The position numbers and the translations under genes were made by a program. This document shows, one piece after another, positions 6,504 to 60,932 of a stretch of 64,000 nucleotides of DNA. The notes beneath the pieces were generated by a model. It saw only the letters and a list, made by a program, of their open reading frames with translations. It made no database searches and had not been told where the DNA came from. The stretch is from a virus, in IMG/VR virus record IMGVR_UViG_3300019776_000961, positions 124,001 to 188,000 of that record; one strand, written 5' to 3'. Position 1 is the stretch's first letter, and each line of letters begins with the position of its first letter.

Positions 6504-7121
6504 TTAATAATCGTCTTCTCCATCATCGCTTGGATCAACGTAGATATGTGCACCACCGTTTTCATCGGGGTTAAGCATCATTTCCGTATATACCTTCTCT
6601 TTGTATTCGTTAAGAGTCTCGTGATGTCGTTTTTCTTTCTTAATTCTATTAATAAACGCATGAAATGCAATAGTAGTAAAATATGAAAATGGGTTAAAAC
6701 CAGAATCAAGCTTAAATTTTTTATTCTTAAGAGCAGAAAACATTTTGACAATCGCATCACCAACCATTTCTTCTTTATAGGAATAATTGATGAAGTTACC
6801 AGCAAATGAAAGACCATGCGCTATCTTATTGATACTATCACCTAGTTTAAATGTAACATGTCCGGTTTTATAAAACTCTCGTATTTCTTCCTCAAACTCT
6901 CTACTATTGACATAATGCTCACGTTCACGTGGCTTTAATTTTTTAGCTACCGGTGCTTCTACTACACTCTCAACTGGCAGTATAATATCGCTAATAATAG
7001 CCTCATGCACTTCACCGCTATCAATAACATCCTCAATAGGAATATCAAGAACTGCAGGCTTTTCTTTTATGCTATTTTTCTGTGATTTCTTTGATAGCAA
7101 ATTTGATTTTTTCTTTTTCAT
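6504..7121 (-). CDS. 55: Late-transcription sigma factor gp55
   Basis: 205 aa. The central part (YVNSREFEEEIREFY, EEMVGDAIVKMFSALKNKKF, FNPFSYFTTIAFHAFINRIK) follows the reduced sigma70 region-2 layout of T4 gp55, which recognises only the TATAAATA element. The first 65 residues are a Lys-rich extension not seen in T4. It overlaps the upstream uvsW gene by 50 bp in another frame. Its presence fits the many TATAAATA elements ahead of virion genes in this window. Confidence 0.88.
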   Translation of the reverse strand: MKKKKSNLLSKKSQKNSIKEKPAVLDIPIEDVIDSGEVHEAIISDIILPVESVVEAPVAKKLKPREREHYVNSREFEEEIREFYKTGHVTFKLGDSINKIAHGLSFAGNFINYSYKEEMVGDAIVKMFSALKNKKFKLDSGFNPFSYFTTIAFHAFINRIKKEKRHHETLNEYKEKVYTEMMLNPDENGGAHIYVDPSDDGEDDY

Positions 7122-8970: not shown

Positions 8971-9228
8971 ATGTCAACAAATCTTTTTAAAAATACGTTT
9001 TTACGAATGCTGTCTGAAGATGCAAATACAGCTGCAGGAGTCTTTGGTCCTGCTGCTGCGGCGGCTGCAGCTAATCCTGCAATGCAGGGTGATCAAATTT
9101 ATAATCCTGGTAACAGTCTGCCGGCTGATCCGGCGAGCCTTGCACTCGGTAAAAAGGTAGTCAAAGGTAAGGGTAAGAAAAACAAGTATAGATTCCCTAT
9201 TGCACGTAGACAAAGAATAAAAACATAA
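8971..9228 (+). CDS. Small virion protein with capsid-targeting-like leader
   Basis: 85 aa. The leader MSTNLFKNTFLRMLSE is amphipathic and ends in a gp21-type cleavage pattern (M-L-S-E before D). It is followed by an Ala-rich segment and a basic tail (KKVVKGKGKKNKYRF), which could bind DNA inside the head. A Shine-Dalgarno-like AAGGA lies 8 bases before ATG, and a CTTAAATA element is at 8945-8952. Function unknown. Confidence 0.6.
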   Translation: MSTNLFKNTFLRMLSEDANTAAGVFGPAAAAAAANPAMQGDQIYNPGNSLPADPASLALGKKVVKGKGKKNKYRFPIARRQRIKT

Positions 9229-10251: not shown

Positions 10252-10259
10252 TATAAATA
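10252..10259 (+). promoter_or_regulatory. Late promoter TATAAATA
   Basis: Perfect T4-type late element. With the standard -13 to -6 placement, +1 falls one base before the ATG at 10266. Confidence 0.85.
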
Positions 10260-10265: not shown

Positions 10266-10721
10266 ATGAGTTTTCTTAAGAAGTACCAAACGTATCTAAA
10301 TTTAGTTACTGAACAGGATGAACAAGGTGTTCAGCCACAGGATGCAACAGCACCTGATGCGGCCGCAGCTGTTCCTGCAGCACCAAGTGAGCCTACAACA
10401 GTAGCACCAGAGGGTTATGTGAACCTCGTTAAGCTTCTTGCAAAATCACTCGCAATGAATATTCCTGTTGGCAATATTGATGCGTTATTTGCTACAACAG
10501 AAGTTACAAGTGAGAATGCTTTTAATACGCAGGATGAGTTGGAGAAGTTTTTAAAGGAAAATGAAATACAATCTGATAATCCTGAAAGACTTGAAAATAT
10601 TAATTATAAAAAATTTATAAGTTCAGTTAATGCTACAAATTTTGAACAAAAATTAAAACAGTTAATTACAGCAATGGAGCAAAGAGATCCTTCTGTTAAA
10701 CAACTTTTCCCTACAAGCTAA
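10266..10721 (+). CDS. Internal virion protein with capsid-targeting-like leader
   Basis: 151 aa. The leader MSFLKKYQTYLNLVTE is followed by an acidic, Ala/Pro-rich linker (residues 17-45) and a helical C-terminal domain. The leader ends in V-T-E, close to the gp21 site. Its TAA overlaps the ATG of the next gene by one base (TAATG), so the two are co-translated. Late promoter directly upstream. Domain function unknown. Confidence 0.65.
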   Translation: MSFLKKYQTYLNLVTEQDEQGVQPQDATAPDAAAAVPAAPSEPTTVAPEGYVNLVKLLAKSLAMNIPVGNIDALFATTEVTSENAFNTQDELEKFLKENEIQSDNPERLENINYKKFISSVNATNFEQKLKQLITAMEQRDPSVKQLFPTS

Positions 10722-12049
10722 TGAAGTACAAGAGTTTAAAAGAAGTATATGCAGAAAAAAGTCTAGGTATTGTATTGCCGCCTCTTAGACGTCAACTTGC
10801 ATATCAGAATATTTTAATTAACGAAGGCGGTGCAGGTGGTAGTATGATCCATCCATTCGATGTACCAGGGGTACGAACAGGTACAGATCTAATAGATATA
10901 TTTGATGAAGCTGTAAAGAGTATTCAATCAGAAAGACCCGCGGTAAAGATTGATGGTGCAAATGTCTCTATTAAGATTGCACGCGATATTGAAGGTAATA
11001 TCAATCGTAATGCAGAAGGTGGAATGGAATTCGGTATTGAAAGAGGTACAAAGAAAGAAGATGATATAAAAGGTGTTACTCTTGACCGACTCGGATCACG
11101 TTTTGTTAATAAAGCTGATCCCTCAAAGCCACACGGTCTTATTGAAGCTGGTGGTATAATTCTCAATATTTTTAATACAGCATTACCATCGATTGAAGGT
11201 GATCTTCAAAAGCTAAAATTTTTCGGCAAAGAAGACCAGCGATTCTTCAATATGGAGTATGTTTATGGTCATACAAATGTCATCGGTTATGATAAGAACT
11301 TCCTCGCAATACACGGTATTAATGAAATTAATATAGTAACAAGAAAAGCGAAAGAAGTTGGCTACAATAAAAATGTACTTGAGAGTATTATAAAGAAGAT
11401 ACGCCCTATTGCAAAACAATATGGTTTTGATGTATATAGTACAATACCTGCAGAGTTTGATGAAGATAATACTGAGGTTGATTTCAGCCCGGCCCTTAGA
11501 ACTAATTTAACTGTAAGATATACACCAGAACATGCTGTTACAAAGTCTATTGCTGCGTGGTTAAAAGAGTGTAATAATCCGACAGGCAAGACAGTTGTAC
11601 TCGCTGACAATAAGCGCATAAGTGCTATGGGGTTACAGAATTATGGAATTATAATGCAAGGCACACCTCTCGATACAGCTATAAAAGACGGCAATGATGT
11701 ACAAATAAATGATGCGATCTGTGGTGCGGTATTTTTACATGCAACACTTCTTATGGGGCAAATACTTAAAAACTCATTGCGTTCTGATATTGGGCATGTA
11801 GGTGCGCATGAAGGTATTGTTGTACGTAATTTAATGTTTAAAGGCAAACCTGTCGGTGTACCTGTAAAATTCACAGGTGAATTTATCGTTGGCAAGGAAG
11901 CTGGTAAGTTTGCAAAGAGCCAGGATGATGAAGATGCAAATCAGCAAATGGTTAATAATTTAAATCGTGGTTATATGGCTGAACCACGGATGCCATGGTC
12001 AGGTCCAGGTGAAGGTAATCCTCCTGGTACAACAGGTGTTAATGTATGA
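10721..12049 (+). CDS. Ligase-superfamily nucleotidyltransferase (RNA/DNA ligase-like)
   Basis: 442 aa. Motif I of covalent nucleotidyltransferases is AVKIDGAN, with the adenylated Lys likely K76 (KxDG). Further motifs are MEYVYGHTN (motif III-like), GIVVRN (motif IV-like) and VPVKFTGEF (motif V-like). The first 35 residues end in LINE before GGAGG, matching an L/I-x-E/G prohead-protease site, so the enzyme may be packaged. The stop overlaps the next ATG by 4 bp. The substrate (RNA or DNA) cannot be told. The leader-cleavage idea is inference. Confidence 0.72.
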   Translation: MKYKSLKEVYAEKSLGIVLPPLRRQLAYQNILINEGGAGGSMIHPFDVPGVRTGTDLIDIFDEAVKSIQSERPAVKIDGANVSIKIARDIEGNINRNAEGGMEFGIERGTKKEDDIKGVTLDRLGSRFVNKADPSKPHGLIEAGGIILNIFNTALPSIEGDLQKLKFFGKEDQRFFNMEYVYGHTNVIGYDKNFLAIHGINEINIVTRKAKEVGYNKNVLESIIKKIRPIAKQYGFDVYSTIPAEFDEDNTEVDFSPALRTNLTVRYTPEHAVTKSIAAWLKECNNPTGKTVVLADNKRISAMGLQNYGIIMQGTPLDTAIKDGNDVQINDAICGAVFLHATLLMGQILKNSLRSDIGHVGAHEGIVVRNLMFKGKPVGVPVKFTGEFIVGKEAGKFAKSQDDEDANQQMVNNLNRGYMAEPRMPWSGPGEGNPPGTTGVNV

Positions 12050-12687
12050 AGTTTGATTTCCTATTTGAAGAATTAATTAATCAGTTTAAACCTTCAGGCG
12101 GCAAAACTGTCGCTATTTTACCTGGAGGATTTAAACCACCTCATAAAGGGCATTTTGATGCACTTAATTATCTTCTTGAAGAAGCTGATAGTGGTATTGT
12201 TTATGTAGGTGGTAAAGTAAGAGAAGGTGTCAATATTACAGCTGATCAATCAAAACAGATCTGGGATATTTATAAAAAGTATCTCAGCAAACCTGTTGAG
12301 GTTTATATAGCAACAGATATTAAGACAATACCTGGGCCGAACGGAGAACAGCCAAAAAATGAATACATACAATCACCCATTCAGGCTACCTACCAGTACG
12401 CCAATACACATAATAATGAAAATATTATTGTAGGTATCGGTCCGGAAGAAGATCCAAATGAATTAAAGCGTTATGCAACTTTTCAAAAGAATCCTGAAAA
12501 ATATCCGCTAGTAAAAATTGTGAATATACCGCCAATGCATAAAAGAATCTCTGGAACAGCAATACGTCAGAAGATTGCATCAGGTGCAAGGGATGCTGTC
12601 GAATACTTTATACCGACACATAATGATGGTAGTCAGTTAATTTCTAATCAAGATAAGCAGAAGATTGCTAAGATTCTTGGTATCTAA
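12046..12687 (+). CDS. HIGH-type nucleotidyltransferase (NMNAT/PPAT-like)
   Basis: 213 aa. GGFKPPHKGHFDAL carries the HxGH active-site motif (H33, H36), and KRISGTAIRQK near residue 170 is the ISSTxxR-like nucleotide-binding motif. Such enzymes transfer an NMP to a phosphorylated acceptor (NMN, pantetheine phosphate, glycerol phosphate). The MKFDFLFEELINQF N-terminus resembles other leaders here, but with no clear cleavage site. Coupled by ATGA overlap to the ligase-like gene. Confidence 0.75.
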   Translation: MKFDFLFEELINQFKPSGGKTVAILPGGFKPPHKGHFDALNYLLEEADSGIVYVGGKVREGVNITADQSKQIWDIYKKYLSKPVEVYIATDIKTIPGPNGEQPKNEYIQSPIQATYQYANTHNNENIIVGIGPEEDPNELKRYATFQKNPEKYPLVKIVNIPPMHKRISGTAIRQKIASGARDAVEYFIPTHNDGSQLISNQDKQKIAKILGI

Positions 12688-13370: not shown

Positions 13371-13682
13371 ATGCGAGGTTTATTTGAGTCATACTTTATA
13401 TCGCTTTTAGAAGAAAAAAACGGACCAAGTCTTTCTATAAAACGCGGTGAGAAATTACCTGTAAGTAGAGGTGGAGGTCTAACAGCAAAGGGTCGTAGAA
13501 AGTATAATAGAGCAACAGGATCTAATTTAAAAGCACCTGTTACCGGAAAGGTAAAGAAAGGCTCAAAGGCATCAAAAAGAAGAAAAAGCTTTTGTGCACG
13601 CTCACGAGCTTGGATTCCAGCAGGTGGGTGTGCAGGTAAGAAAACACGTGGTTGCGCAGCAAGAAGGAGATGGAAATGCTAA
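13371..13682 (+). CDS. Basic leader-bearing protein, DUF6321-like
   Basis: 103 aa. The leader MRGLFESYFISLLEE is followed by a very basic, Gly/Ser/Cys-containing domain (GGGLTAKGRRKYNRATGSNL, KKGSKASKRRKSFCARSRAW, CAARRRWKC) resembling a small conserved domain of phage and bacterial proteins that I recall as DUF6321. High charge suggests nucleic-acid binding within the capsid. Overlaps the next gene by 7 bp. Confidence 0.68.
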   Translation: MRGLFESYFISLLEEKNGPSLSIKRGEKLPVSRGGGLTAKGRRKYNRATGSNLKAPVTGKVKKGSKASKRRKSFCARSRAWIPAGGCAGKKTRGCAARRRWKC

Positions 13683-21341: not shown

Positions 21342-22160
21342 ATGAATAATAAAATTGGAATCGGTATTGTAACGTGTAATAGGCCGAATTTTTTCGTTAA
21401 ATGCTTAAGATCAATGCCAGGTAACTACATAATTGCAGTAGTTAATGACGGATCTGATTTTGACAAAACAGATTTAAATAAATTACTAACAGAGAAAAAA
21501 TTTACATATATTCATAACACTGTTAATCAAGGAGTCGGCAAATCAAAAAATTTACTATTTAAAACCCTGCTCGATGCAGGATGTGATCATATCTTCATAG
21601 TTGAAGATGATATTATTGTTAAAGATCATAACGTTTTTGAAAAATATATAGAAGCTCGTAATATTACCGGTATACAGCATTTTAATTTTGGGTATCACGG
21701 TCCTGCAAATAAAGCAGGAATATCGGGTGGTAAGCCTGTGCCACGTCATGTAATTGATTACGGTTCAGTTAAGATAGCGCTCAATCAACATAGCGTAGGC
21801 GCCTTTTGTTATTATACACGCGAAGTTTTAGAAAAAGTTGGTCTTATCGACGAAGATTTTCATAATGCATTTGAGCATGTTGAACATGACTATAGAATAG
21901 CTAAAGCTGGTTACTGCACTCCATATTGGAATTGGCCAGATCTTGCCAATAGTATGGATTATTTAGATGAGATTGAATGCTCAGAAAAAAGTAGTGCTAT
22001 TAGACCGCGTAAAGATTGGCAAGAGAATATTCAGAAAGGTGCAAAATTGTTTCTTGATAAGCATGGTGTATTACCAGCCTGGCAGAATGCTGTACCTGAT
22101 ACTACAATCGATAACATAAAAACTATTCTCAAGAAAATATATAAGAAGTATGGAAGATAA
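21342..22160 (+). CDS. GT2-family glycosyltransferase
   Basis: 272 aa GT-A enzyme. GIGIVTCNRPNFFVKCLRS is the N-terminal nucleotide-binding motif, VVNDGSD follows, and IVEDDIIV supplies the DxD-like metal site. First gene of a nine-gene cassette; its end overlaps the next start by 11 bp. Donor and acceptor unknown. Confidence 0.8.
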   Translation: MNNKIGIGIVTCNRPNFFVKCLRSMPGNYIIAVVNDGSDFDKTDLNKLLTEKKFTYIHNTVNQGVGKSKNLLFKTLLDAGCDHIFIVEDDIIVKDHNVFEKYIEARNITGIQHFNFGYHGPANKAGISGGKPVPRHVIDYGSVKIALNQHSVGAFCYYTREVLEKVGLIDEDFHNAFEHVEHDYRIAKAGYCTPYWNWPDLANSMDYLDEIECSEKSSAIRPRKDWQENIQKGAKLFLDKHGVLPAWQNAVPDTTIDNIKTILKKIYKKYGR

Positions 22161-22977
22161 AATTGATTTAAAAGGTTTAACGTTTTTGTTTCATGTTAGA
22201 ATTGATACAGAGGAACGCGCAAGAAACCTACAAATAATAAACAAGTATCATAATAAGAATTTTACTAACTATAAAAACATTTACATCGAAGATGATGTAA
22301 AAATGAACATCCCTAAGTTAATAGATATCTCTGATAGAGATACTTACGTCTTTACGTACAATGATGATCAATGGAATAAGTGTGCATCGTTTAATAAAGG
22401 TATTGCATTAGCAAAGTCAGAGTTAATTGCATTTCATGATTTAGATGCGATTATATCGCCTGAACAGTTCACAGATGCAATTAATCAGTTACTTGAAGAT
22501 AAAGAAGCAGGCTTAGTTTATCCGTATAACGGTACATTCTTATGTGTTAATAAGCAGCTTAAAGATGAATTTGCTAATGAGCTTGATTCAAGCTATTTTA
22601 TAAAATACTGGCCGAGTGTAATGCAGGTTAACTATAGCGATGGTAATGTATTAGTTGGTAGTCTCGGTAGTGTAGGCGGCTGTGTTCTCGGTAGACGTGA
22701 TAATATAATAAAGGCTAATGGTTATAATCCAAATTTCAAAGGATGGGGGTACGAAGATAACGAATTTCCACGACGTGTTCATGTATTCGGTTTTTCGGTC
22801 TCCAAACTTACAAATAATAAGCATGTCTTATGGCATCTACCACACGATGGTCCGGGTGCTTCGGTTAAAGTAGAAAACCCTTATCATGAGCAAAATAGAC
22901 AAATCTGCTCATTCGTTGAAACAGCACCAAAGAGCGATGTTATCAAATATACAAAGGAGAGCTGGAATATAATATGA
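22150..22977 (+). CDS. Glycosyltransferase with galactosyltransferase-like C-terminal domain
   Basis: 275 aa GT-A type protein. LIAFHDLDAIISPEQF contains the DxD-like metal site, and KGWGYEDNEFPRRVHVFG matches the WGxEDxE acceptor motif of Glyco_transf_7C enzymes. AAAGGAG precedes the following gene, whose ATG overlaps this stop. Confidence 0.78.
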   Translation: MEDKIDLKGLTFLFHVRIDTEERARNLQIINKYHNKNFTNYKNIYIEDDVKMNIPKLIDISDRDTYVFTYNDDQWNKCASFNKGIALAKSELIAFHDLDAIISPEQFTDAINQLLEDKEAGLVYPYNGTFLCVNKQLKDEFANELDSSYFIKYWPSVMQVNYSDGNVLVGSLGSVGGCVLGRRDNIIKANGYNPNFKGWGYEDNEFPRRVHVFGFSVSKLTNNKHVLWHLPHDGPGASVKVENPYHEQNRQICSFVETAPKSDVIKYTKESWNII

Positions 22978-23756
22978 TTATACCGAGATTAAAAGGCGGT
23001 CTTTGTAATCAGATGTTTACAATCGCTGCAGCTGCAGCGAGAGCGAAAGATCTAGAAACTGAAGTATGTATCAATTATCGTGGCCTACCACATGTAGGTG
23101 GACAGGGATTTAATCCTTTACGATACAGGGAAACACTCTACAGTAATATTAAGGAAACAGATACTATGTTTCATAATGTTTATGCAGAACCCGACTGGTC
23201 TTATTCACCAATAACGTGTTCCGATAATACTATTATTGACGGGTATTTTCAATCTGAAAAACATTTTGCAAAGTATTCAGATTATATAAAAAATCTTTTT
23301 ATCTTTCCTGATGCAATAAGAAATAAGATCAACAACGCACTAACGAAATTTGATAAGAAAATATTAACTGTACACATAAGAATGGGTGACTACTTACAGC
23401 CAAGCTATATGAGTACGCATTTTATATGTAACCGTGATTACTACATTAATGCACTTAAGAATTACAATTTAAATGATTATACAATCATTGTTTGTACTGA
23501 CGATGTTGCAAGCTATACAAAATATATTAATATAGAAAATGCCATTCTTTGTAATAGCAAGGACGAGCTAGAAGACCTCTATATGCTCTCACAAGCAGAT
23601 TCATCCATTATGTCAAATAGTACTTTTTCTTGGTGGGGTGCATATCTAGGCAAAAATAAAGAAAAAATATGTGCACCTAGTCGTTGGTTTGGTGCTGATG
23701 GACCAAAAGACTATAAGGACATTTATAGAGATTGCTGGACAATTATAGACGTATGA
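22974..23756 (+). CDS. GT11-like alpha-1,2-fucosyltransferase
   Basis: 260 aa. LKGGLCNQMFTIAAA is the family 11 N-terminal motif, VHIRMGDYL the HxRxGD donor-binding motif, and SNSTFSWWGAYLG the conserved C-terminal block. Predicted to transfer a GDP-linked deoxyhexose such as L-fucose or L-galactose. ATGA overlap with the next gene. Confidence 0.85.
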   Translation: MIIPRLKGGLCNQMFTIAAAAARAKDLETEVCINYRGLPHVGGQGFNPLRYRETLYSNIKETDTMFHNVYAEPDWSYSPITCSDNTIIDGYFQSEKHFAKYSDYIKNLFIFPDAIRNKINNALTKFDKKILTVHIRMGDYLQPSYMSTHFICNRDYYINALKNYNLNDYTIIVCTDDVASYTKYINIENAILCNSKDELEDLYMLSQADSSIMSNSTFSWWGAYLGKNKEKICAPSRWFGADGPKDYKDIYRDCWTIIDV

Positions 23757-24577
23757 AACAAATTAACATAAGAGATAGTAATTTTGCACACCATCCTGAG
23801 TCAATGACTCATGAGAAGAAAGCAACATTCATTAAATGGTGCCGTGATAATATAGCTGTAAGTGATTCGTGTTTTATAACAGATCTACACTTACATGAAG
23901 TTGACAAGTGTCATGCAAAAAGAAAAATAGCGATGCTTGTAGAACCACGCGCTATTAATCCACACGCATATGCTTTCATTGAACAAAATCATAAAAAGTT
24001 TGATTATGTTCTTACTTTTGATAAAGAGCTTTTAGATCGAGGAGCAAATTTTTTATTTTATCCTTTTGGTGTTTGTTGGGTTAAGGATTTCTCAACACCT
24101 GTAAAGAGCAAAATATGCTCTATGATTGCTTCAAATAAACGAATGACACCTGGTCATAATTTTAGACAGGATGTTATTGAACGTTTTAGTGGACGTGTCG
24201 ATCACTTCGGTAACGGCTTTAAAAGAATTGAAACAAAGGAAGAAGGTCTACAAGACTATTATTTTTCTATCGTACTCGAAAATTCACGTAACGATTATTA
24301 TTTCTCTGAAAAAATAATTGACTGTTTTGCATGCAAAACAATTCCTATATACTGGGGTTCTAACGTTGAACCGTTTTTTGATACTTCAGGTATTATAGTA
24401 TTTAATACTATGGAGGAACTCGAGAATATATACAGCAAGCTATCTGTTGAGTTATATAACTCAATGAGTGAGGGAATGCAGAATAATTATAAAAAAGTAA
24501 AAGAGTATGAGATACCTGAAGACTGGTTATTTAAGAGGTACCCGTTTCTCTTCGACTCACCTCTTGCTATAATATGA
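23753..24577 (+). CDS. GT10-like alpha-1,3-fucosyltransferase
   Basis: 274 aa from ATG 23753, which overlaps the previous stop (ATGA); the longer frame starting 23732 is less likely. YYFSIVLENSRNDYYFSEKI and the following TIPIYWG form the family 10 fucosyltransferase donor-binding motif. Together with the GT11 gene it points to fucose-type glycan assembly. Confidence 0.85.
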   Translation: MKQINIRDSNFAHHPESMTHEKKATFIKWCRDNIAVSDSCFITDLHLHEVDKCHAKRKIAMLVEPRAINPHAYAFIEQNHKKFDYVLTFDKELLDRGANFLFYPFGVCWVKDFSTPVKSKICSMIASNKRMTPGHNFRQDVIERFSGRVDHFGNGFKRIETKEEGLQDYYFSIVLENSRNDYYFSEKIIDCFACKTIPIYWGSNVEPFFDTSGIIVFNTMEELENIYSKLSVELYNSMSEGMQNNYKKVKEYEIPEDWLFKRYPFLFDSPLAII

Positions 24578-25320
24578 AAGTAGCTGTTATACGTCAACCC
24601 GCTGGTTTAGGGGATATTCTATTTACCTATAAGGTTGCAGAAAAGATAAATGAAAAATTTAAACCTGAGCAAATAATATGGCCGGTCTGTAAGGAGTATT
24701 CTGATATTAAAGATTATATTGATACCCCGTCCAATATACATTTTGTTAATGAGGATAGTGAGTTTCCTGGTAAGAAGTTATATGACTCCTTTATTCGTCA
24801 AGTTGTAAATATAGATGATATAACCTATATACCTCTGCAATATAGTTGTGAGTCGACATATGGTTATTTTAATTTTCAAGAAAACCTATATTCAAAATAT
24901 AGCTTTGTCGGTCTAGATTATAAAAATTGGGCCGTTTATGTAAAGCTTAAACGCAATCACGAAAAGGAAGAAAGCTTGTTCAATCTCAAAGCTCCTAATG
25001 AACCGTATATTCTTGTTAACCGTAATTACGGTACAAATCCTCAGAAGAGACAAGATATTGCTCTTACATCAAAATATAAAATTGTAGAATTTGATTACGA
25101 GCCTGGGTATAATCTATTTGACTGGATAAAACTTATTGAACAAGCAGAAGAAGTACACACACTTCAGACATCCCTTGCTTATTTGCTCGACATTCTTGGT
25201 AAGCAAAGAGTACATATCTATCACAGAGCAGTAAAAAAAGCAGATATTGCCGGTACAGATCAAGACTCTTTTTACTATTGCAAAAAAATACATAACCCAG
25301 AATGGATTTTTGAATCTTAA
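24574..25320 (+). CDS. GT-B-fold glycosyltransferase-like protein (GT9-like)
   Basis: 248 aa. RQPAGLGDILFTYKVAEKI resembles the N-terminal GxGDxL motif of heptosyltransferase-like (GT9) proteins, and IEQAEEVHTLQTSLAYLLD the C-terminal donor region. The core is short, so activity is uncertain. Within the cassette, overlapping the upstream stop by 4 bp. Confidence 0.58.
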   Translation: MKVAVIRQPAGLGDILFTYKVAEKINEKFKPEQIIWPVCKEYSDIKDYIDTPSNIHFVNEDSEFPGKKLYDSFIRQVVNIDDITYIPLQYSCESTYGYFNFQENLYSKYSFVGLDYKNWAVYVKLKRNHEKEESLFNLKAPNEPYILVNRNYGTNPQKRQDIALTSKYKIVEFDYEPGYNLFDWIKLIEQAEEVHTLQTSLAYLLDILGKQRVHIYHRAVKKADIAGTDQDSFYYCKKIHNPEWIFES

Positions 25321-25330
25321 GCAATATAAT
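25303..25330 (+). promoter_or_regulatory. Sigma70-type promoter inside glycan cassette
   Basis: TGGATT, 16 bp spacer, TATAAT; expected +1 two bases before ATG 25339. Confidence 0.6.
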
Positions 25331-25338
25331 AATAGGGT

Positions 25339-26316
25339 ATGACATATCTAATCACTGGTATTACTGGCTTTGCCGGGCCACATCTTGCTAATCTTCTTAT
25401 TGAAAACGGACATACTGTTTACGGTCTTGTAAGAAACTCAAACGGTCGCGAGACAGATATTCTCGACGTTGTACCAGAAGAAAACTTTCAAAAAATTAAG
25501 TTCCTTTATAGCGACTTAACTAATTTCCGTACACTCAATAACCTTTTTAAGGAAAATAAGTTTGACGGTGTATTTCATTTAGCAGCACAATCTCACCCAC
25601 CAACGAGCTTTATTGACCCTATCGGTACAATGGAAGCCAATGTAATGGGTAGTGCGAATCTGATACAGGCAATTCTTGATAATCAGCCTGAATGTAAATT
25701 GATGTTCTGTAGTACTTCTGAAGTTTACGGTAATGTTGGTATTGACGGTCGTAAGATTAAGATCACTGATTTCTTACTTCCTGCTAACCCATACGGTGCA
25801 AGTAAGGCTGCTACCGATCTTTACTTACAGGAACGTTTTGAAAATAAGCAGCTCCGTGGTTATATTACACGTGCCTTCTCACACACCGGGCCTCGACGCG
25901 GCAAGACGTTCTCAATCTCATCTGATGCATATCAAATTGCAAAGATGATGAAGGGTCTTCAGGATAAGACACTTCTTGTTGGTAATTTAAAGTCAGTTCG
26001 TGTTGTGCTCGATGTTCGTGACATTGTTAATGCATATTATCTTTTAATGTTATCAGATAAATCTGATGGAAAGGTGTTTAACGTCTCCGGTGATGTGCCG
26101 CATGAGATGGGTGTATATACAGATATGCTTCTTGAGAAGAGCGGTTTGACAGATGTAGTAAAGGAGATTTCACCTAAGCTCTACCGTCCAATCGATATTC
26201 ATTATCAACACGGTGATTGTTCAGAGCTCGTTGACATTACAGGTTGGGCACCAAAGCGAACCCTCGACCAAACAATGGGTGATCTTCTCAATTATTGGCT
26301 CGGTAAAATTAACTAA
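25339..26316 (+). CDS. gmd: GDP-mannose 4,6-dehydratase-like SDR enzyme
   Basis: 325 aa extended short-chain dehydrogenase. TGITGFAGPHLA is the NAD(P)-binding Gly motif, CSTSEVYG with NPYGASKAA the catalytic Ser and Tyr-xxx-Lys, and RAFSHTGPRRGKTF matches the GMD/RMD family substrate loop. Predicted to make GDP-4-keto-6-deoxymannose, precursor of GDP-fucose, GDP-rhamnose or related sugars. An RMD-type reductase is the main alternative. Confidence 0.82.
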   Translation: MTYLITGITGFAGPHLANLLIENGHTVYGLVRNSNGRETDILDVVPEENFQKIKFLYSDLTNFRTLNNLFKENKFDGVFHLAAQSHPPTSFIDPIGTMEANVMGSANLIQAILDNQPECKLMFCSTSEVYGNVGIDGRKIKITDFLLPANPYGASKAATDLYLQERFENKQLRGYITRAFSHTGPRRGKTFSISSDAYQIAKMMKGLQDKTLLVGNLKSVRVVLDVRDIVNAYYLLMLSDKSDGKVFNVSGDVPHEMGVYTDMLLEKSGLTDVVKEISPKLYRPIDIHYQHGDCSELVDITGWAPKRTLDQTMGDLLNYWLGKIN

Positions 26317-26317
26317 T

Positions 26318-26923
26318 ATGGGTTCAATAAGAAGCTTTGATATCGCTGAAATTAAGCAGCGTACCGGAATTTCTACATTTGTAGAAACAGGTACACTCTA
26401 TGGCGATGGTGTTGATTATGCACTCTCTTGCGGTTTTGATAGAGTTATTTCAATTGAAATAGAACCTAAACTAGTTGTAAAGGCTGAGCAAAAATATAAA
26501 GATAATAATAAGGTTGAAATTGTTCACGGTGATTCATCAACAGTAATACCAGAGATTACTGAGTTTATGGAGGAACCGGCTTTATTTTGGCTTGATGCAC
26601 ACTTCCCTGGGGCTGATGCTGGTATTTGCGAATATACAGCAGAGCAAGATTATAATAGAAGACTTCCTCTTGAAGCCGAATTAAAAGCAATTCATAAGCG
26701 TGGCAAGCCTGATGTTATTATCTGTGATGATCTTTGGATATATGAAGACGGTGATTATGAATCCGGTAGCTTTAATGATCATTGCGCTCGTCACGGGCAG
26801 AATATGACAAGAGAGCAAATTTGCGGAAAAAATCTTGATGAAATTTGTGCTCTTTTTGAACCGACTCACAAGATTAAGAAATACTATCACCAACAGGGCT
26901 TTATTGTCTTCATGCCTAAATGA
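26318..26923 (+). CDS. SAM-dependent methyltransferase, class I-like
   Basis: 201 aa from ATG 26318, two bases after the previous stop. TFVETGTLYGDGVDYAL, RVISIEIEPKLV and VEIVHGDSS match motifs I-III of Rossmann methyltransferases, with ALFWLDAHFPG further on. It may O-methylate a sugar built by its neighbours; no substrate motif is visible. Confidence 0.75.
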   Translation: MGSIRSFDIAEIKQRTGISTFVETGTLYGDGVDYALSCGFDRVISIEIEPKLVVKAEQKYKDNNKVEIVHGDSSTVIPEITEFMEEPALFWLDAHFPGADAGICEYTAEQDYNRRLPLEAELKAIHKRGKPDVIICDDLWIYEDGDYESGSFNDHCARHGQNMTREQICGKNLDEICALFEPTHKIKKYYHQQGFIVFMPK

Positions 26924-27717
26924 AAGTTGTAACGAATTTTGATCATAACTATCACGACGACCCTATTCGATATTTTAAGTTCGAGGAGTTTCAGGATATT
27001 GCGGAGGATAGCATCCTCTTCGTAGGTGCACATCCGCATCAGAGTATTGCAGAACCTGCTGATGTACCAAAGTATTTCTTCAGTACAGAAGAGCAATCTT
27101 GGTCACAGGATGGTACTGATCAATATCTTTCCTTTGTAGATAAGATTCTTACGATATGTCCACCGAGTGTTACTGGTAGACAAAAAAGACAGGCAGCGTT
27201 CTTTCCCCTTAATACAAAAGATATACCATCAGATATAGAAAAAAAATATGATGTAATATATACAGGATTTGCTGGCGGTGATCATATCTCTAAATTATTA
27301 GATGTAATTAAAAATTTTAATTATAGATTAGTTAGCTTTAGCAGTCACGGTGGTCTTACAACAGACTTAAATGCATCATATAAGGATAAACTTAATTTAA
27401 TTGCACAATCTAAGCTTTGCATTACTCATAATCAAACCGGTACAGGCACACCTCAATTGAAGAGTAGAATTTTTGAAGCTGCATTTTGTAAGAGCCTCAT
27501 GCTTGTTCTTCGCGATGAATATAACATCGTAGAGGAATGGTTTACTCCAGAAGTTGATTTTATCTATTATGATATGGACAATCTTGAGCAAACAATAAAG
27601 GCTTGTCTACAGGAGCCTGAGGCATGTGAGGAAATAGCTAATAATGCATTTAATAAGGCAACTACTAATTATACGACAGAAAAGTTTATAGAAAAATATA
27701 TAGGATTTAAAAAATGA
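26920..27717 (+). CDS. GT-B glycosyltransferase-like protein
   Basis: 265 aa. The C-terminal half (ITHNQTGTGTPQLKSRIFEA, then LMLVLRDEYNIVEEWF) follows the pattern of group 1 glycosyltransferase donor domains. The N-terminal domain is short. Overlaps both neighbours by 4 bp. Confidence 0.7.
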   Translation: MKVVTNFDHNYHDDPIRYFKFEEFQDIAEDSILFVGAHPHQSIAEPADVPKYFFSTEEQSWSQDGTDQYLSFVDKILTICPPSVTGRQKRQAAFFPLNTKDIPSDIEKKYDVIYTGFAGGDHISKLLDVIKNFNYRLVSFSSHGGLTTDLNASYKDKLNLIAQSKLCITHNQTGTGTPQLKSRIFEAAFCKSLMLVLRDEYNIVEEWFTPEVDFIYYDMDNLEQTIKACLQEPEACEEIANNAFNKATTNYTTEKFIEKYIGFKK

Positions 27718-28649
27718 ACAAGTACATTGTAACAACAACTATTAATTCTCCAACTGAAGCAACGCTTAAGTTCTGTGAGAAGAAGGATTGGAATTTTATT
27801 ATTGTAGGTGATACGAAGACACCAGAGTCTGAATACCGTGAACTCGAAGATCGTTATCCAAATGTTGAATATCTATCACCTGCACAGCAGGAAGAGAAAT
27901 ATGATATCTTGAGCGATACTATTGGATGGAAGACAATTCAACGTCGTAATATCGGGTTTGTACATGCATATAATAAGGGTGCTGATGTACTCGCAACGGT
28001 TGATGATGATAATATTCCGTATGAAAATTGGGGTGAAAATCTTTATATTGGACAGGAGATAGAGTGTGATAGCTATACAACAGATAATCTAGTGTTTGAT
28101 CCACTTGCTGTAACTAATCACAACTACCTCTGGCATCGCGGTGTTCCAATTGAACTTCTTCAGAAAAAGAACAATGTAACATATACAGGTAAAACAAAAC
28201 GTAAAGTTTTGATTCAAGCAGATCTCTGGGATGGTGATCCAGATATTGATGCAATGGCTCGACTGACATATAAGTCACTCGTTAAGTTTAATATTACTCG
28301 ACCTTATTGCAGTAATGTAATTTCACCGTTTAATAGTCAAAATACATTTATTGCTCGCGAAGTAATACCGTATTATACGGTGCTACCCTACGTGGGACGC
28401 ATGGACGATATTTGGTCTAGTTATTACGTACAGACACTCTTCAAAGACAATCTTATCTACGCACCAGCATCGGTCTATCAAGATAGAAATGTACAGGATC
28501 TTATTACAAATCTAGAGAAAGAAGTTATTGGTTATCGCAACACGTTAAGCTTTATTCTTTCAAATTGTGATTATAACTGCAATTTTATTCCAGAAGAAAC
28601 AAGACAGTTCTTCAAGACATATAGAGCTTGCTTCTCCGATCAACTTTAA
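27714..28649 (+). CDS. STELLO-like (DUF288) glycosyltransferase
   Basis: 311 aa. VTTTINSPTEAT at the N-terminus, FIIVGDTKTP and TVDDDNIPYENWG (metal-binding DDD) match the STELLO/DUF288 group of putative glycosyltransferases. In the cassette, just before the epimerase gene. Confidence 0.72.
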   Translation: MNKYIVTTTINSPTEATLKFCEKKDWNFIIVGDTKTPESEYRELEDRYPNVEYLSPAQQEEKYDILSDTIGWKTIQRRNIGFVHAYNKGADVLATVDDDNIPYENWGENLYIGQEIECDSYTTDNLVFDPLAVTNHNYLWHRGVPIELLQKKNNVTYTGKTKRKVLIQADLWDGDPDIDAMARLTYKSLVKFNITRPYCSNVISPFNSQNTFIAREVIPYYTVLPYVGRMDDIWSSYYVQTLFKDNLIYAPASVYQDRNVQDLITNLEKEVIGYRNTLSFILSNCDYNCNFIPEETRQFFKTYRACFSDQL

Positions 28650-28660
28650 TAAAGTATAGC

Positions 28661-29656
28661 ATGAAGACAGCATTAGTATTAGGAGCCGGTGGCTTTATCG
28701 GTAATCATCTTGTTAACCGCCTCAAAGACGAAGGTTATTGGGTGCGTGGAGTTGATTTAAAATATAATGAATATCAGGAAACAAGAGCTGATGATTTTGT
28801 AATTGGTGATTTAACTGATACTTTAGTAGTGAGAAATGTTATGTGGGCACCAGAGCAAAAAAGCTATACTGAAGGTTCATTTGATGAAGTTTATCAACTC
28901 GCAGCTGATATGGGCGGCGCAGGTTATATTTTTAGCGGTGAGAATGATGCAAATGTTATGCACAATTCTGCAACAATTAATCTTAACGTTGCTGATACAG
29001 CTGTAAAGAATAATATTAAGAAGCTATTTTACAGTAGTAGTGCGTGTATGTATCCTGAGCATAATCAGTTAGATCCTAATAACCCAAACTGTGAAGAGAG
29101 TAGTGCATATCCTGCTAATCCTGATAGTGAATACGGCTGGGAAAAACTTTTTAGTGAGAGACTATTTCTCGCATATAATCGAAATTATAAGCTGAATGTG
29201 CGCATTGCACGCTTTCATAATATCTTTGGACCAAAGGGTTCGTGGAATAACGGTAAGGAAAAGTCACCAGCAGCAATATGTCGTAAGGTAGCTCAGGCAA
29301 GGACTGGTGAAGAAATAGAGATCTGGGGTGATGGTGAACAGACACGTAGCTTCCTTTACATAGACGAATGTCTTGAGGGTGTTCGTCGTTTAATGAATCA
29401 AGATGAATTTCTCGGCCCTGTTAATATTGGATCTGATGAAATGGTCACAATTAACAAACTAGCAGATATCGCATGTGAAATCGGAGGTAAAACACTTGTA
29501 AAGAAGCACATACCTGGTCCCCTCGGAGTGCGTGGTAGAAACTCTGATAACAATCTTATTTTTGCTAAACTTGGATGGAAGCCAACTCTTTCACTAAAAG
29601 AAGGTTTAACAAAAACTTACAACTGGATTAACGAGCAAGTTCATTTACAATCGTAG
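28661..29656 (+). CDS. GDP-mannose 3,5-epimerase-like SDR enzyme
   Basis: 331 aa from ATG 28661. GAGGFIGNHL binds NAD; YQLAADMGGAGYIFSGENDA and FYSSSACMYPE are close to GDP-mannose 3,5-epimerase (GDP-L-galactose forming). YGWEKL supplies Tyr-xxx-Lys. It could also act as the epimerase/reductase partner of the Gmd-like enzyme, since no separate GDP-fucose synthase is present. Confidence 0.83.
   Translation: MKTALVLGAGGFIGNHLVNRLKDEGYWVRGVDLKYNEYQETRADDFVIGDLTDTLVVRNVMWAPEQKSYTEGSFDEVYQLAADMGGAGYIFSGENDANVMHNSATINLNVADTAVKNNIKKLFYSSSACMYPEHNQLDPNNPNCEESSAYPANPDSEYGWEKLFSERLFLAYNRNYKLNVRIARFHNIFGPKGSWNNGKEKSPAAICRKVAQARTGEEIEIWGDGEQTRSFLYIDECLEGVRRLMNQDEFLGPVNIGSDEMVTINKLADIACEIGGKTLVKKHIPGPLGVRGRNSDNNLIFAKLGWKPTLSLKEGLTKTYNWINEQVHLQS
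29624..29651 (+). promoter_or_regulatory. Sigma70-type promoter
   Basis: TGGATT, 16 bp spacer, TACAAT; expected +1 is the A of ATG 29658. Confidence 0.62.
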
Positions 29657-39035: not shown

Positions 39036-39695
39036 ATGTCATTACGCCTACTTGTAGAAACGCCCTCATTAGATCAATTCGAATACATTGAGGAGCAAAA
39101 GAATGTAAAAGGACCATCGACTCTCAAAATTCGTGGCGTGTATATGGAGTCAGAATCTGTAAACAAGAATCAACGTATCTATACAGAAGGTGATATGCGC
39201 CGTGAAGTTGACCGTTATATTAACGAAATGGTTAGACCAAAGCGTGCCCTTGGTGAATTAAATCACCCTGCCTCCGCGGAAGTAGATCTTGAAAGAGCAT
39301 GTCACATGGTAACCGATCTACACTGGGAAGGTAAGACAGTAGTTGGAGAATCAGTTGTTCTCTCCTCACCTACAGGTCAAATTGTTCGATCACTCATTAA
39401 TGACGGTGTTAAGGTTGGTATGTCAAGTCGCGCCCTTGGTCAACTTTCAGAAGAGGGTCACGGCATTAACCGCGTTAATGAGATGCGTCTTATCGCAGTT
39501 GACTGTGTTGCTGATCCATCTTGTCCTAAAGCTTTTGTAAACGGTATTCTTGAAAGTAAGCAATTCGTCATTAACTCTGACGGTCGACTTGAAGAATACT
39601 ACGACAGATTTGAAAACGCTCTCAAGAAGCTACCTCGCAATGATGTACAAGCATATCTTAAGGAGCAAGTAATGGCCTTCCTAAGTAAGCTTTAA
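39036..39695 (+). CDS. 21: Prohead core protease gp21
   Basis: 219 aa (T4: 212). Catalytic His in GELNHPAS (H77) and Ser in VGMSSRALG (S130/S131), with VDCVADPSCPKAF downstream, as in herpes-type S77/S78 prohead proteases. It should cut scaffold, capsid and leader-bearing internal proteins after L/I-x-E, giving a direct functional link to the leader family. Confidence 0.95.
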   Translation: MSLRLLVETPSLDQFEYIEEQKNVKGPSTLKIRGVYMESESVNKNQRIYTEGDMRREVDRYINEMVRPKRALGELNHPASAEVDLERACHMVTDLHWEGKTVVGESVVLSSPTGQIVRSLINDGVKVGMSSRALGQLSEEGHGINRVNEMRLIAVDCVADPSCPKAFVNGILESKQFVINSDGRLEEYYDRFENALKKLPRNDVQAYLKEQVMAFLSKL

Positions 39696-41969: not shown

Positions 41970-43493
41970 ATGGTCGACAAATCGAAAGAAATTAAATTAA
42001 CTATGTCAAGCATTCGTCCTTCTCAGTCTTACATCGATGAGAATCGCGCTAAGCTTCTTGTTGAAAAGTGGGCTCCAGTATTGGATTACACTTCAAACAA
42101 TGTAGCGGCGATCGAAGATGATCACACACGTCTTAACACAGCTATTCTTCTTGAAAACCAAGAAAAGTACTGTTTTGAGTCTGCCAACCAATCCGGTGGC
42201 ACAGGTGGCGTGTTCAACACAGGCAGCATCAATAACGGTGCATACGGCAATCAGTTCCCATCACAGAACGATAACGCCTATGCTCCTGGTGACGCCCGTC
42301 TTCCAAAGATCCTCATCCCGATGATTAGACGTACATTCCCTGAGCTTATCACTAACGAAATCGTTGGTGTTCAGCCAATGAGTGGTCCAGTTGGTCTTGC
42401 TTTTGCACTCCGTTATAAGTACGAAGGCTCACTCCTTGGTGCAACCAATGGCAATGGATCCGATGGATCCCTCAACGCTGGTTCAACAACAAGTTACAGT
42501 GCAGCTGCTTCTGGCGCTGAACTCGGGTATCAATATCTTGATACACGTTTCACAGGTGCTTCTTCACAGGCTCTTTCTGGTGCTCCGGGATACTTCCCGA
42601 TGGAGCCTCAGGATCAGGGTGTTGCAGCTCTCCTTAGCCAGTTCGAACTATCCAGTCAGATTCCTCAGATCGTTGTCTCCTTCGAGAAGACCGCAGTTGA
42701 AGCCGGCACACGCCGTCTCGCAGCTCGTTGGTCCGTCGAACTCGAGCAGGATCTTAAGAACATGAACGGTATCGATATCGATACTGAGCTCACAAACGCT
42801 ATGTCGTATGAGCTTCAGGCCGAAATCGACCGTGAAATGATCATCCGTATGGTACAGACAGCCCTTAACACAGGTTATGGTTCTGGCTTCTCCGTATGGT
42901 CACCTGCTTCGGCAGATGGTCGCTGGTTGGTAGAGCGTAATCGTGACTTCTATCAGAGACTCATCGTTGAGGCTAATCGTATTGCTGTACGTAACCGTCG
43001 TGGTGCTGCTAACTTCATTGTAGCAACTCCTCGCGTTTGCGCAATCCTTGAAATGCTCCCTGAATTCCAGTGGGTACCTGTTCAAGGTAACGTCAATACT
43101 CAGCCCGTCGGTGTTGCAAAGGTAGGTTCACTCGCTGGTCGCTTCAATGTATACCGTGATACACGTACAGAGGCACAATACGAAGCATCCTTCGGCAATA
43201 ACCTTGCCGGTGCACGCTTCCCAAGTGGCGCTACACGCTCCGCTCGCCTCGATTACGCACTTCTCGGCTACAAGGGCCCTGAGTTCTACGACACTGGTAT
43301 CATCTACTGTCCTTACATTCCTGTAATGGTTCAGCGTACCATTGGTCCTAACGATTTCTCACCTCGTGTTGGTCTATTAACCCGTTACGGCGTTGTAGAT
43401 AACATCTTCGGTGCAAATCTTTATTACCACGTCATCATCCTTCAGGGTCTTGGTGCAGCGTTCACACCTGCTACTCAGTCTGTATACTTCTAA
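41970..43493 (+). CDS. 23: Major capsid protein gp23
   Basis: 507 aa (T4: 521). LLVEKWAPVLDY, RRTFPELITNEIVGVQPMSG, RRLAARWSVELEQDLKNMNG and GLLTRYGVVDNIFGANLYYH are signature blocks of gp23. LLENQEKYC near residue 65 resembles the gp21 maturation site. Codons are visibly richer in C and G than in neighbours, consistent with very high expression. A strong terminator follows. Confidence 0.97.
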   Translation: MVDKSKEIKLTMSSIRPSQSYIDENRAKLLVEKWAPVLDYTSNNVAAIEDDHTRLNTAILLENQEKYCFESANQSGGTGGVFNTGSINNGAYGNQFPSQNDNAYAPGDARLPKILIPMIRRTFPELITNEIVGVQPMSGPVGLAFALRYKYEGSLLGATNGNGSDGSLNAGSTTSYSAAASGAELGYQYLDTRFTGASSQALSGAPGYFPMEPQDQGVAALLSQFELSSQIPQIVVSFEKTAVEAGTRRLAARWSVELEQDLKNMNGIDIDTELTNAMSYELQAEIDREMIIRMVQTALNTGYGSGFSVWSPASADGRWLVERNRDFYQRLIVEANRIAVRNRRGAANFIVATPRVCAILEMLPEFQWVPVQGNVNTQPVGVAKVGSLAGRFNVYRDTRTEAQYEASFGNNLAGARFPSGATRSARLDYALLGYKGPEFYDTGIIYCPYIPVMVQRTIGPNDFSPRVGLLTRYGVVDNIFGANLYYHVIILQGLGAAFTPATQSVYF

Positions 43494-56976: not shown

Positions 56977-57390
56977 TTATATCTGTCGACCACGTGGTAC
57001 AGGAATTAAAGCAGGTATTGTACCCGGTGCTGCTTCATCAGAAGTATAAATCGTATCACCAATTTTTGTTATGTTCGAAGTAACAAAGCGCTGATTGTTA
57101 TTATGTTTGATAAGCTCGCGTATTCTTGATGCATGTTCCTCAAGATCACTAATATTAAAAATCATATTTTTATCACCGCTAAAAACTTTAGAACCCTGAG
57201 GCGGCTGTTGCAGTTTAGATGGCTGCGCTGTACCCTCTGGTGGTATGACCGAAGTAGGTGTAACTGGCTCTGCTTGCTTTGCAGTTTCAGATTGATCATT
57301 ACTCTGACCCATCATGTCATTCTCAACAACCGGCTTATACATATCGTTATAAGCCTTAGCAAGATAAATTTTGTCTCTTAAGCCTATCAT
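56977..57390 (-). CDS. Internal-type protein with leader
   Basis: 137 aa. The leader-like MIGLRDKIYLAKAYNDMYKP is followed by a Gln/Pro/Thr-rich linker (residues 25-65) and a domain with SDLEEHASRIRELIKHNNNQ. ATG overlaps the upstream stop (4 bp). Fourth gene of the leader operon that starts at 59024. Unknown. Confidence 0.6.
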   Translation of the reverse strand: MIGLRDKIYLAKAYNDMYKPVVENDMMGQSNDQSETAKQAEPVTPTSVIPPEGTAQPSKLQQPPQGSKVFSGDKNMIFNISDLEEHASRIRELIKHNNNQRFVTSNITKIGDTIYTSDEAAPGTIPALIPVPRGRQI

Positions 57391-57914
57391 TGTTTTAAAA
57401 GGCGATCACTTGAATAGTCGTATTGATTTAAACGACCAACGTTAACAGAGCTTCCGATATCAGTAATGTATTTGTCATCCTGTGGTGGAAATATAACCTT
57501 TGGCCCGCGTTTTGGATAATACTTGATAACATAATCAAATGTAAAATCTTTACCCTTACTACCAAACTTATTTGGTACCACACTACTATTTGGACCTGAT
57601 TGATTTACCTGATCGGGTCCTGAACGCATACGTACAAGAACCTTACCTGGTGCTACAATCTTTTGTATCTCACCATATGCGGATATCTTCTGATTATAAC
57701 CTTCAGGTTGATATATTACATTTACATATTTTGTACCCGTCTGATACTTAAAAATCTTTTCGTCATGCTCAATCTGATCGACATCATTTTGTTCTTTTTC
57801 GAGATCTTCATGCTCTTGGGCACCAGCGCGTATATCTTCATCTCTAAAATCAGCATCTGACTCAAGATATATTCTTGAATAAGCTTCAGCAATAAGGTGT
57901 AAATCGTTTTTCAT
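57387..57914 (-). CDS. Internal-type protein with capsid-targeting-like leader
   Basis: 175 aa. The leader MKNDLHLIAE precedes AY, an exact L/I-x-E/A site. The C-terminal half has beta strands with basic residues (VIKYYPKRGPKVIFPPQDDK). One base separates it from the upstream gene. Function unknown. Confidence 0.65.
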   Translation of the reverse strand: MKNDLHLIAEAYSRIYLESDADFRDEDIRAGAQEHEDLEKEQNDVDQIEHDEKIFKYQTGTKYVNVIYQPEGYNQKISAYGEIQKIVAPGKVLVRMRSGPDQVNQSGPNSSVVPNKFGSKGKDFTFDYVIKYYPKRGPKVIFPPQDDKYITDIGSSVNVGRLNQYDYSSDRLLKQ

Positions 57915-57915
57915 A

Positions 57916-58686: not shown

Positions 58687-59024
58687 TATACAACACCTGG
58701 TTGAATTGATCCATCACCCTCTATACCAACCCCGCACTCATCATCAGCGCCTGGAACTTCTTCGTTCTCCGGATGACGAGCATGAGCTGATTCAGCACCG
58801 TCATTCCAGACAGTCTGACACCATTGATGAAAATCTTCCTCTGTCCATGCACCTTCTTTTACAGCGTGATATGCATCCCAGAATGGATAATTATGAAAGC
58901 TAATGTCTTTTTTAGCCTGGTCGTATTCAGCTACCTCCTTAGGATCGAGACCGAGTTCTGTCTCAGCATTTTCGGTAATAGCTTTTTTATAAGCCTCAAA
59001 TAAAAGATGGATATCTTTGTTCAT
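58686..59024 (-). CDS. Internal-type protein with capsid-targeting-like leader
   Basis: 112 aa. The leader MNKDIHLLFE precedes AYKKAITENAET. A helical acidic body (FWDAYHAVKEGAWTEEDFHQ) and a C-terminus with DDECGVGIEGDGS follow. First gene of a four-gene leftward operon of leader proteins. Confidence 0.66.
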   Translation of the reverse strand: MNKDIHLLFEAYKKAITENAETELGLDPKEVAEYDQAKKDISFHNYPFWDAYHAVKEGAWTEEDFHQWCQTVWNDGAESAHARHPENEEVPGADDECGVGIEGDGSIQPGVV

Positions 59025-59037
59025 AAATTATCATAAG

Positions 59038-59045
59038 TATTTATT
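59038..59045 (-). promoter_or_regulatory. Late promoter AATAAATA
   Basis: Predicted leader of about 8 bases to ATG 59024; heads the leader-protein operon. Confidence 0.75.
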
Positions 59046-59063
59046 TCTCCACCTACCTAATTA

Positions 59064-59071
59064 AATAAATT
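59064..59071 (+). promoter_or_regulatory. Late promoter AATAAATT
   Basis: Predicted leader of 4 bases to ATG 59081. Confidence 0.65.
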
Positions 59072-59080
59072 TATTAATAT

Positions 59081-60927: not shown

Positions 60928-60932
60928 ATAGG

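What the first reader, a model, noticed from the sequence alone, without database searches (positions are those of the whole stretch)
10721..12687. Packaged-looking ligase plus HIGH nucleotidyltransferase pair
A KxDG ligase-superfamily enzyme (K76) with an N-terminal segment ending LINE/GG is translationally coupled (ATGA) to an HxGH nucleotidyltransferase. The operon starts from a late promoter with a leader-bearing protein. Late expression plus leaders suggest enzymes injected with DNA to act at once on host RNA, NAD or nucleotides.
Basis: partly seen in the sequence, partly recalled or inferred. Interest (0 to 1): 0.62.

Follow-up and report, generated by a model that had tools for sequence, protein, structure and literature searches.

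The report
Head-packaged phage ligase–nucleotidyltransferase pair
A T4-like environmental phage makes two linked enzymes, a ligase-like protein and a nucleotide-adenylating protein, each led by a short tag of the kind that sends T4 proteins into the virus head, and hundreds of uncultured phages carry the same ligase, so it looks like a widespread, barely described cargo delivered into bacteria at the start of infection.

Summary
P0001 (10721-12049) has ligase-superfamily motifs I (K76-IDG), III (NME), IV (EGIV) and a single-lysine motif V (KFTG); P0002 (12046-12687, ATGA overlap) is a HIGH adenylyltransferase whose predicted fold matches NaMNAT/PPAT. Neither is well named by Pfam or PHROGs, but 543 environmental viral stretches encode P0001 relatives. 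In the 80 closest, chosen without using the leader, every ligase not cut off by the sequence end (74) is adjacent or fused, in either order, to a HIGH NTase. Seventy-seven of 80 carry [L/I/V]xE|GG just before the ordered core, the T4 gp21 rule; the other three begin Met-GGAxGHM, at the predicted mature end. The predicted site is disordered, the genome encodes an S77 prohead protease and gp55-like late sigma, and TATAAATA 6 nt upstream of the operon also precedes portal and sheath genes. In cyanophages a DUF6267 + 'cytidyltransferase' pair has the same layout, and published mass spectrometry finds that NTase in virions. Head-targeted, protease-processed cargo is the best reading (about 0.7). 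Virion presence and processing were not shown for this phage. The substrate is unknown: nucleic-acid end repair with NAD- or CoA-type adenylylation is my best guess (about 0.3).

The parts
10252..10259 (+). TATAAATA, T4-type late promoter -10 element (predicted), 6 nt before the ATG of the first gene of the operon
   Evidence: sequence; same element 5-21 nt before 14 gene starts incl. portal and tail sheath; reversed word 12, so suggestive only
10266..10721 (+). first gene of the operon, 151 aa, leader MSFLKKYQTYLNLVTE|Q, Ala/Pro-rich, unknown function
   Evidence: ORF; homologues in L004, L007, L008 keep a leader ending LNE|Q, LHE|A, LNE|Q
10721..12049 (+). P0001, ligase-like covalent nucleotidyltransferase, 442 aa
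   Evidence: motifs I, III, IV, V invariant in 45 relatives; AF2 pLDDT 83.9
10721..10825 (+). N-terminal leader of P0001 (residues 1-35) ending in the predicted prohead-protease site LINE|GG
   Evidence: helix 6-13, residues 19-39 pLDDT <50; [L/I/V]xE|GG in 77 of 80 relatives chosen without it
10946..10957 (+). motif I KIDG, predicted nucleotidylated Lys76
   Evidence: invariant in A1 and A2
12046..12687 (+). P0002, HIGH-superfamily adenylyltransferase, 213 aa, with an N-terminal helical leader (residues ~1-15) overlapping the ligase by ATGA
   Evidence: HxGH and SGTxxR; profile hits NaMNAT/PPAT/NMNAT in PDB (E 2.4e-7); AF2 pLDDT 87.9; Foldseek NaMNAT/PPAT E 3.6e-6
6504..7121 (-). gp55-like late sigma factor, the predicted reader of TATAAATA
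   Evidence: phrog_234 late sigma E 3.9e-26
39036..39695 (+). prohead protease (Peptidase_S77, gp21 type), predicted to cut the leaders
   Evidence: Pfam S77 E 1.6e-36; phrog_207 E 1.3e-51
13371..13682 (+). neighbouring leader-bearing gene (DUF6321), same syntenic block
   Evidence: Pfam DUF6321 E 2.9e-17; conserved order in L004, L007
12688..13332 (-). convergent leader-bearing gene MFAKDYHLLNEIY..., same block
   Evidence: homologues in L004, L007, L008 in the same place

Best explanation
The two genes encode a paired enzyme cargo of the phage head. A late promoter drives a translationally coupled operon. The N-terminal leaders act as capsid-targeting sequences that put the proteins into the prohead core, and the gp21-type S77 protease then cuts after L/I-x-E, leaving a ligase that begins GGAxGHMxHPF (inferred from conservation and leaderless relatives). 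The enzymes are packed with the DNA and enter the host with it (inferred from T4 and cyanophage precedent). The ligase-like protein forms a lysyl-nucleotide on K76 (inferred from motifs), and the HIGH enzyme transfers AMP to a small phosphate substrate of the NMN or phosphopantetheine kind (inferred from fold and signature). Because they are always neighbours or fused, they serve one pathway. My best guess is repair of nucleic-acid ends together with restoring or feeding an adenylylated cofactor, at the moment when host defences cut RNA or drain NAD. Approximate likelihoods: packaging 0.7, common pathway 0.85, this particular substrate guess 0.3.
For: Linkage: 74 of 74 uncut loci of the 80 closest have the NTase adjacent (42) or fused (16 N-terminal, 16 C-terminal). 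Leader site: 77 of 80 have [L/I/V]xE|GG (P3 L 61, I 14, V 2), and 3 of 80 start Met-GGAxGHM; in 45 dereplicated relatives P3 is L/I in 40, P2 is free, P1 is E in all. The site is disordered while the core is ordered from residue 41. S77 protease in this genome and in 13 of 18 related records. Late sigma and TATAAATA spacing. In a rumen contig (L101) the ligase sits in a run of leader-bearing genes beside prohead protease and major head protein. T4 gp21 cuts after L/I-x-E and the first 10 residues of IPIII suffice for packaging (PMC9026906). The homologous NTase class was found in virions of S-SM1 (PMC3037559), S-SZBM1 (PMC9146016), S-CREM2 (PMC10665884) and S-SCSM1 (PMC9602691); the S-SZBM1 and S-CREM2 copies begin MRFRQFIIE|A and MKNFSSFLTE|A. 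NTase fold and profile.
Against: No virion data for this phage or for any member of the P0001 family. In S-SZBM1 the DUF6267 partner has no leader and is not among the MS rows that I read. Ligase fold support is weak in the PDB (T7 DNA ligase rank 3, E 0.11, probability 0.13), motif V has one lysine instead of KxK, and no OB-fold domain is evident. P0002's own leader lacks a clean L/I-x-E|G/A site (LFE|E). No NadV-like gene weakens a NAD salvage reading. Relatives are related sequences, not independent draws.
Confidence: 0.62

Rival explanations
1. The pair is ordinary intracellular enzymes (nucleic-acid ligase plus NMN/NaMN adenylyltransferase) made during infection; the leader-like N-termini are structural parts and not propeptides.
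For: Cyanophage DUF6267 partners mostly lack leaders. P0002's leader has no clean cleavage site. The authors of the virion studies themselves allow carry-over of abundant proteins (PMC10665884, PMC9602691).
Against: The segment with the site is disordered and the fold starts after it. L/I-x-E|GG is kept while the leader sequence and length vary, and leaderless relatives start at the predicted mature end. Leader-bearing genes cluster with the prohead protease in L101.
Confidence: 0.22
2. A self-contained NAD+-driven ligase: the ligase takes AMP from NAD+, releasing NMN, and the NTase turns NMN plus ATP back into NAD+.
For: Explains the universal linkage of the two enzymes and the NMNAT-like fold and signature.
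Against: No Ia NAD-binding domain: no Pfam match in P0001 and no PF01653 in the genome. The Foldseek match to PPAT is as good as to NaMNAT, so NMN specificity is unproven.
Confidence: 0.12
3. The ligase-fold protein is not a nucleic-acid ligase but an AMP- or GMP-transferase that caps RNA, or modifies a protein or small molecule; the NTase makes its donor.
For: Motif V is single-lysine and no OB-fold domain is evident. Capping enzymes and ligases share the fold, and the BFVD list includes DNA ligase, RNA ligase and capping enzyme at weak scores.
Against: No direct evidence for any acceptor.
Confidence: 0.2

Closest known systems
Cyanophage DUF6267 (PF19782; T4-GC 71) + cytidyltransferase (T4-GC 190) gene pair
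   Same: Ligase-like KxDG protein next to, or in S-PM2 fused with, a HIGH NTase; HLEHPED before motif I resembles HMxHPFD; motif IV EGFV; the NTase has a leader and is found in virions
   Different: P0001 gives no DUF6267 Pfam hit; profile comparison is weak (probability 8); DUF6267 proteins mostly lack a leader; motif V differs (KIVDR against KFTG)
T4 internal head proteins IPI-III and Alt (capsid-targeting sequence, gp21 processing)
   Same: Short N-terminal leader ending L/I-x-E, late expression, gp21-type protease in the genome
   Different: Cargo is a ligase-like enzyme and a HIGH NTase, not a nuclease inhibitor or ADP-ribosyltransferase; virion presence not shown
Polyvalent proteins of phages and conjugative elements (PMC5512222)
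   Same: Relatives are fused into multi-enzyme chains of up to 1483 aa with DUF192, SOD, cupredoxin or GNAT domains
   Different: Here the linkers between domains carry L/I-x-E|G/S/A/N sites, which suggests cutting into separate enzymes in the prohead; no NTase-ligase architecture appeared in the passages I read
ATP-dependent DNA/RNA ligases and mRNA capping enzymes
   Same: Motifs I, III, IV and part of V in order
   Different: No match to PF01068, PF09414 or PF01653 in the genome; only weak fold matches
NaMN/NMN adenylyltransferase and phosphopantetheine adenylyltransferase
   Same: HxGH, SGTxxR, Rossmann-like fold
   Different: about 14-18% identity over the aligned fold; substrate pocket not assigned

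Membership tests
T4-type internal (capsid-targeted) head protein | short N-terminal leader ending L/I-x-E | tested here: met
   P0001 LINE|GG; 77 of 80 relatives
T4-type internal (capsid-targeted) head protein | gp21-type prohead protease encoded in the genome | tested here: met
   S77 E 1.6e-36
T4-type internal (capsid-targeted) head protein | late promoter | tested here: inconclusive
   TATAAATA 6 nt upstream, as for sheath; genome-wide count not above control
T4-type internal (capsid-targeted) head protein | presence and processing in the virion | not testable with these tools
   only for the homologous cyanophage NTase class, from papers
Ligase/capping covalent nucleotidyltransferase superfamily | motifs I (KxDG), III (E), IV (EGxV) | tested here: met
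   invariant in 45 sequences
Ligase/capping covalent nucleotidyltransferase superfamily | motif V KxK | tested here: not met
   one invariant lysine, K-x-T-G
Ligase/capping covalent nucleotidyltransferase superfamily | ligase fold | tested here: inconclusive
   Solivirus DNA ligase E 4.6e-3 in BFVD, T7 DNA ligase E 0.11 in PDB
DUF6267 (PF19782) | Pfam profile match | tested here: not met
   no hit for P0001; hhalign probability 8
DUF6267 (PF19782) | gene pair or fusion with a HIGH NTase | tested here: met
   74 of 74 uncut loci; cyanophages
NAD+-dependent DNA ligase | Ia/adenylation domain PF01653 | tested here: not met
   no hit
HIGH adenylyltransferase (NMNAT/PPAT class) | (H/T)xGH and SxTxxR motifs and fold | tested here: met
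HIGH adenylyltransferase (NMNAT/PPAT class) | NMN or phosphopantetheine as substrate | not testable with these tools
   needs an assay

The most novel reading that the evidence does not exclude
An uncharacterised enzyme system, an NTase and a ligase always paired, built as polyproteins or operons, cut apart inside the prohead and injected to perform a two-step nucleotidyl-transfer reaction (for example a cofactor-recycling ligase or a new nucleic-acid capping or end-protection reaction) that no known phage or host pathway does.
Probability: 0.2. Interest if true: 0.85.

Novelty: new variant of a known kind. Interest (0 to 1): 0.62.

Why it matters
At least several hundred uncultured viral stretches encode this ligase family, yet Pfam and PHROGs gave no match and among 50,697 phage records I found only three with a relative. 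It ties a recurring but unexplained finding, 'cytidyltransferase' or NMNAT-like proteins in cyanophage virions, to a partner enzyme and to a delivery route. It gives a precise prediction (mature N-terminus GGA) that one mass-spectrometry run can test, and a route to what phages do to host nucleotides in the first minutes.

Tried and rejected
Single-sequence tblastn of P0001 against cultured phages gave nothing at 1e-5 and only weak hits at a loose limit. PDB sequence searches for the ligase gave only chance hits, such as ribosomal protein S7. The TATAAATA count over the genome was no better than its reversed control; only the position near gene starts is informative, and weakly. A permissive count of [ILV]xE[AGSN] in N-termini of all predicted genes gave 35 against about 20 expected, a modest excess, so I rest the leader claim on conservation instead. 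A replicative DNA ligase role was considered: the genome has no other recognised ligase (PF01068, PF09414 and PF01653 absent; the PF09511 test was uninformative because its control never rang), so a role in the phage's own DNA cannot be excluded, but cargo-type leaders argue against it as the only role. NAD salvage by the NadV route was rejected for this genome.

Full report
What is there. The window lies in a 193,220-base virus record with T4-type head genes: portal, S77 prohead protease and major head protein, plus a gp55-like late sigma factor. The finding's coordinates are exact. Three genes are joined by overlapping stop and start codons: a 151-aa protein with a leader (10266-10721), the ligase-like protein P0001 (10721-12049) and the HIGH nucleotidyltransferase P0002 (12046-12687).

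The ligase-like protein. P0001 has no Pfam or PHROG match. Alignment of relatives shows invariant motif I (K76-x-D-G), motif III (N177-x-E179), motif IV (E364-G-x-V) and a single-lysine motif V (K383-x-T-G). AlphaFold2 gives mean pLDDT 83.9; the ordered part begins at residue 41, and residues 19-39 are disordered. Foldseek finds nothing significant in the PDB (T7 DNA ligase is third, E 0.11, probability 0.13). In the viral library the best hits are unnamed phage proteins and cytidyltransferase-like fusions, with S-PM2 (E 1.5e-3) and a Solivirus DNA ligase (E 4.6e-3) lower down. So the motif reading is good, the fold reading is only suggestive, and the substrate is open.

The nucleotidyltransferase. 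HxGH and SGTxxR are present, and 31 relatives keep the catalytic positions. A profile finds NaMN adenylyltransferase (E 2.4e-7), phosphopantetheine adenylyltransferase and archaeal NMN adenylyltransferase in the PDB. The model (pLDDT 87.9) matches NaMNAT and PPAT structures equally well (E 3.6e-6 and 4.1e-6). NMN specificity is therefore not established.

A large linked family. A second scan, whose patterns did not include the leader, found 543. I analysed the 80 closest of these, many of them close relatives or contigs already seen. In all 74 that are not cut off after the ligase, a HIGH NTase is adjacent downstream (42) or fused at the C-terminal (16) or N-terminal side (16). Among the 50,697 phage records I found relatives only in Microcystis phage Mel-JY01 and two uncultured megaphages, and among genome contigs one that also carries prohead protease and head protein. 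Some relatives are single chains of up to 1483 aa that also hold DUF192, superoxide dismutase, cupredoxin or GNAT domains.

The leader. T4 gp21 cuts after L/I-x-E, and the first 10 residues of IPIII suffice for packaging (PMC9026906). Seventy-seven of the 80 relatives have [L/I/V]xE|GG just upstream of HMxHPF. The other three (L168, L182, L183) begin with Met directly before GGAAGHM and have no leader. In 45 dereplicated relatives P3 is L or I in 40 and P2 is free. The EGG letters themselves were used in the first scan, so only the second scan counts for them. In the fused chains the linkers also carry L/I-x-E|G/S/A/N sites. S77 protease is present in 13 of 18 related records, and the five without it are partial contigs of 11-130 kb. 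In L101 the ligase lies in a run of genes that share a leader of the type MKSIxxYIxE, next to the protease. P0002's own leader has no clean site (LFE|E), although the L004 and L007 copies have LE|S there.

Late expression. TATAAATA lies 6 nt before the first ATG. The word is not in excess genome-wide, but 14 genes have a copy 5-21 nt before their start, including portal and sheath. The reversed word precedes 12 genes in the same 60-nt window, so this is supportive only.

Link to cultured phages. In cyanophages a DUF6267 protein and a cytidyltransferase are neighbours (P-SSM4, S-SSM4, Sf-CH3, S-SZBM1) or one chain (S-PM2). tblastn with the S-PM2 protein matched 547 records, 201 of them over at least 80% of the query. 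DUF6267 has KxDG, EGFV and a lysine in motif V, and HLEHPED before motif I, which lines up with HMxHPFD in a weak profile alignment. I take it as a likely distant relative, not as a proven member. Published virion mass spectrometry reports the NTase in S-SM1 (PMC3037559), S-SZBM1 (PMC9146016), S-CREM2 (PMC10665884) and an NMNAT in S-SCSM1 (PMC9602691), with the authors' own caution about carry-over. The DUF6267 partner of S-SZBM1 has no leader and does not appear among the MS rows I read, which fits the idea that leader means packaging.

Interpretation. Shown: the genes, motifs, linkage, leader conservation and NTase fold. Inferred: cleavage, packaging, ejection, lysyl-nucleotide chemistry and common pathway. 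Guess: end repair with cofactor restoration. The genome has no other recognised ATP- or NAD-dependent ligase and no NadV-like gene. No paper in the held library mentions DUF6267, and I saw no description of this pairing as a ligase-NTase cargo; that is absence from one library only.

Noticed in passing
window 8971-9228 and 41970-43493: A small basic leader-bearing protein; its homologue in L004 (1394-1666) contains GNQFPSQNDMAYAPGDAR, almost identical to GNQFPSQNDNAYAPGDAR near residue 95 of this phage's major head protein.
   Followed up: partly
L101:176-8276 (rumen contig titled uncultured Firmicutes RUG343): About a dozen consecutive small genes share N-termini like MKSIxxYIxE / MKDIxxYLxNEA next to a prohead protease and major head protein: a likely array of head-targeted proteins in a large phage binned as a bacterium.
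   Followed up: partly
window 56977-62043: Several minus-strand genes share the N-terminus MNKDIHLIFEAY / MNNDSHLLNEAY, a second leader type in the same genome.
   Followed up: no
L012:4259-6395, L019, L024: HIGH NTases fused to metallopeptidase-like domains (IrrE/M78, M91) and, in Flavobacterium phage immuto, to a Pol-beta-like NTase region; a zeta-toxin-like kinase lies next to one. Possibly related head cargo.
   Followed up: partly
L090:1428-5660: One 1411-aa chain joins HIGH NTase, Fe/Mn superoxide dismutase, plastocyanin-like, ligase-like and GNAT domains.
   Followed up: partly
window 21342-29656: A long run of sugar-related genes (glycosyltransferase-like, epimerase-like) inside the phage genome, judged by eye only.
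   Followed up: no
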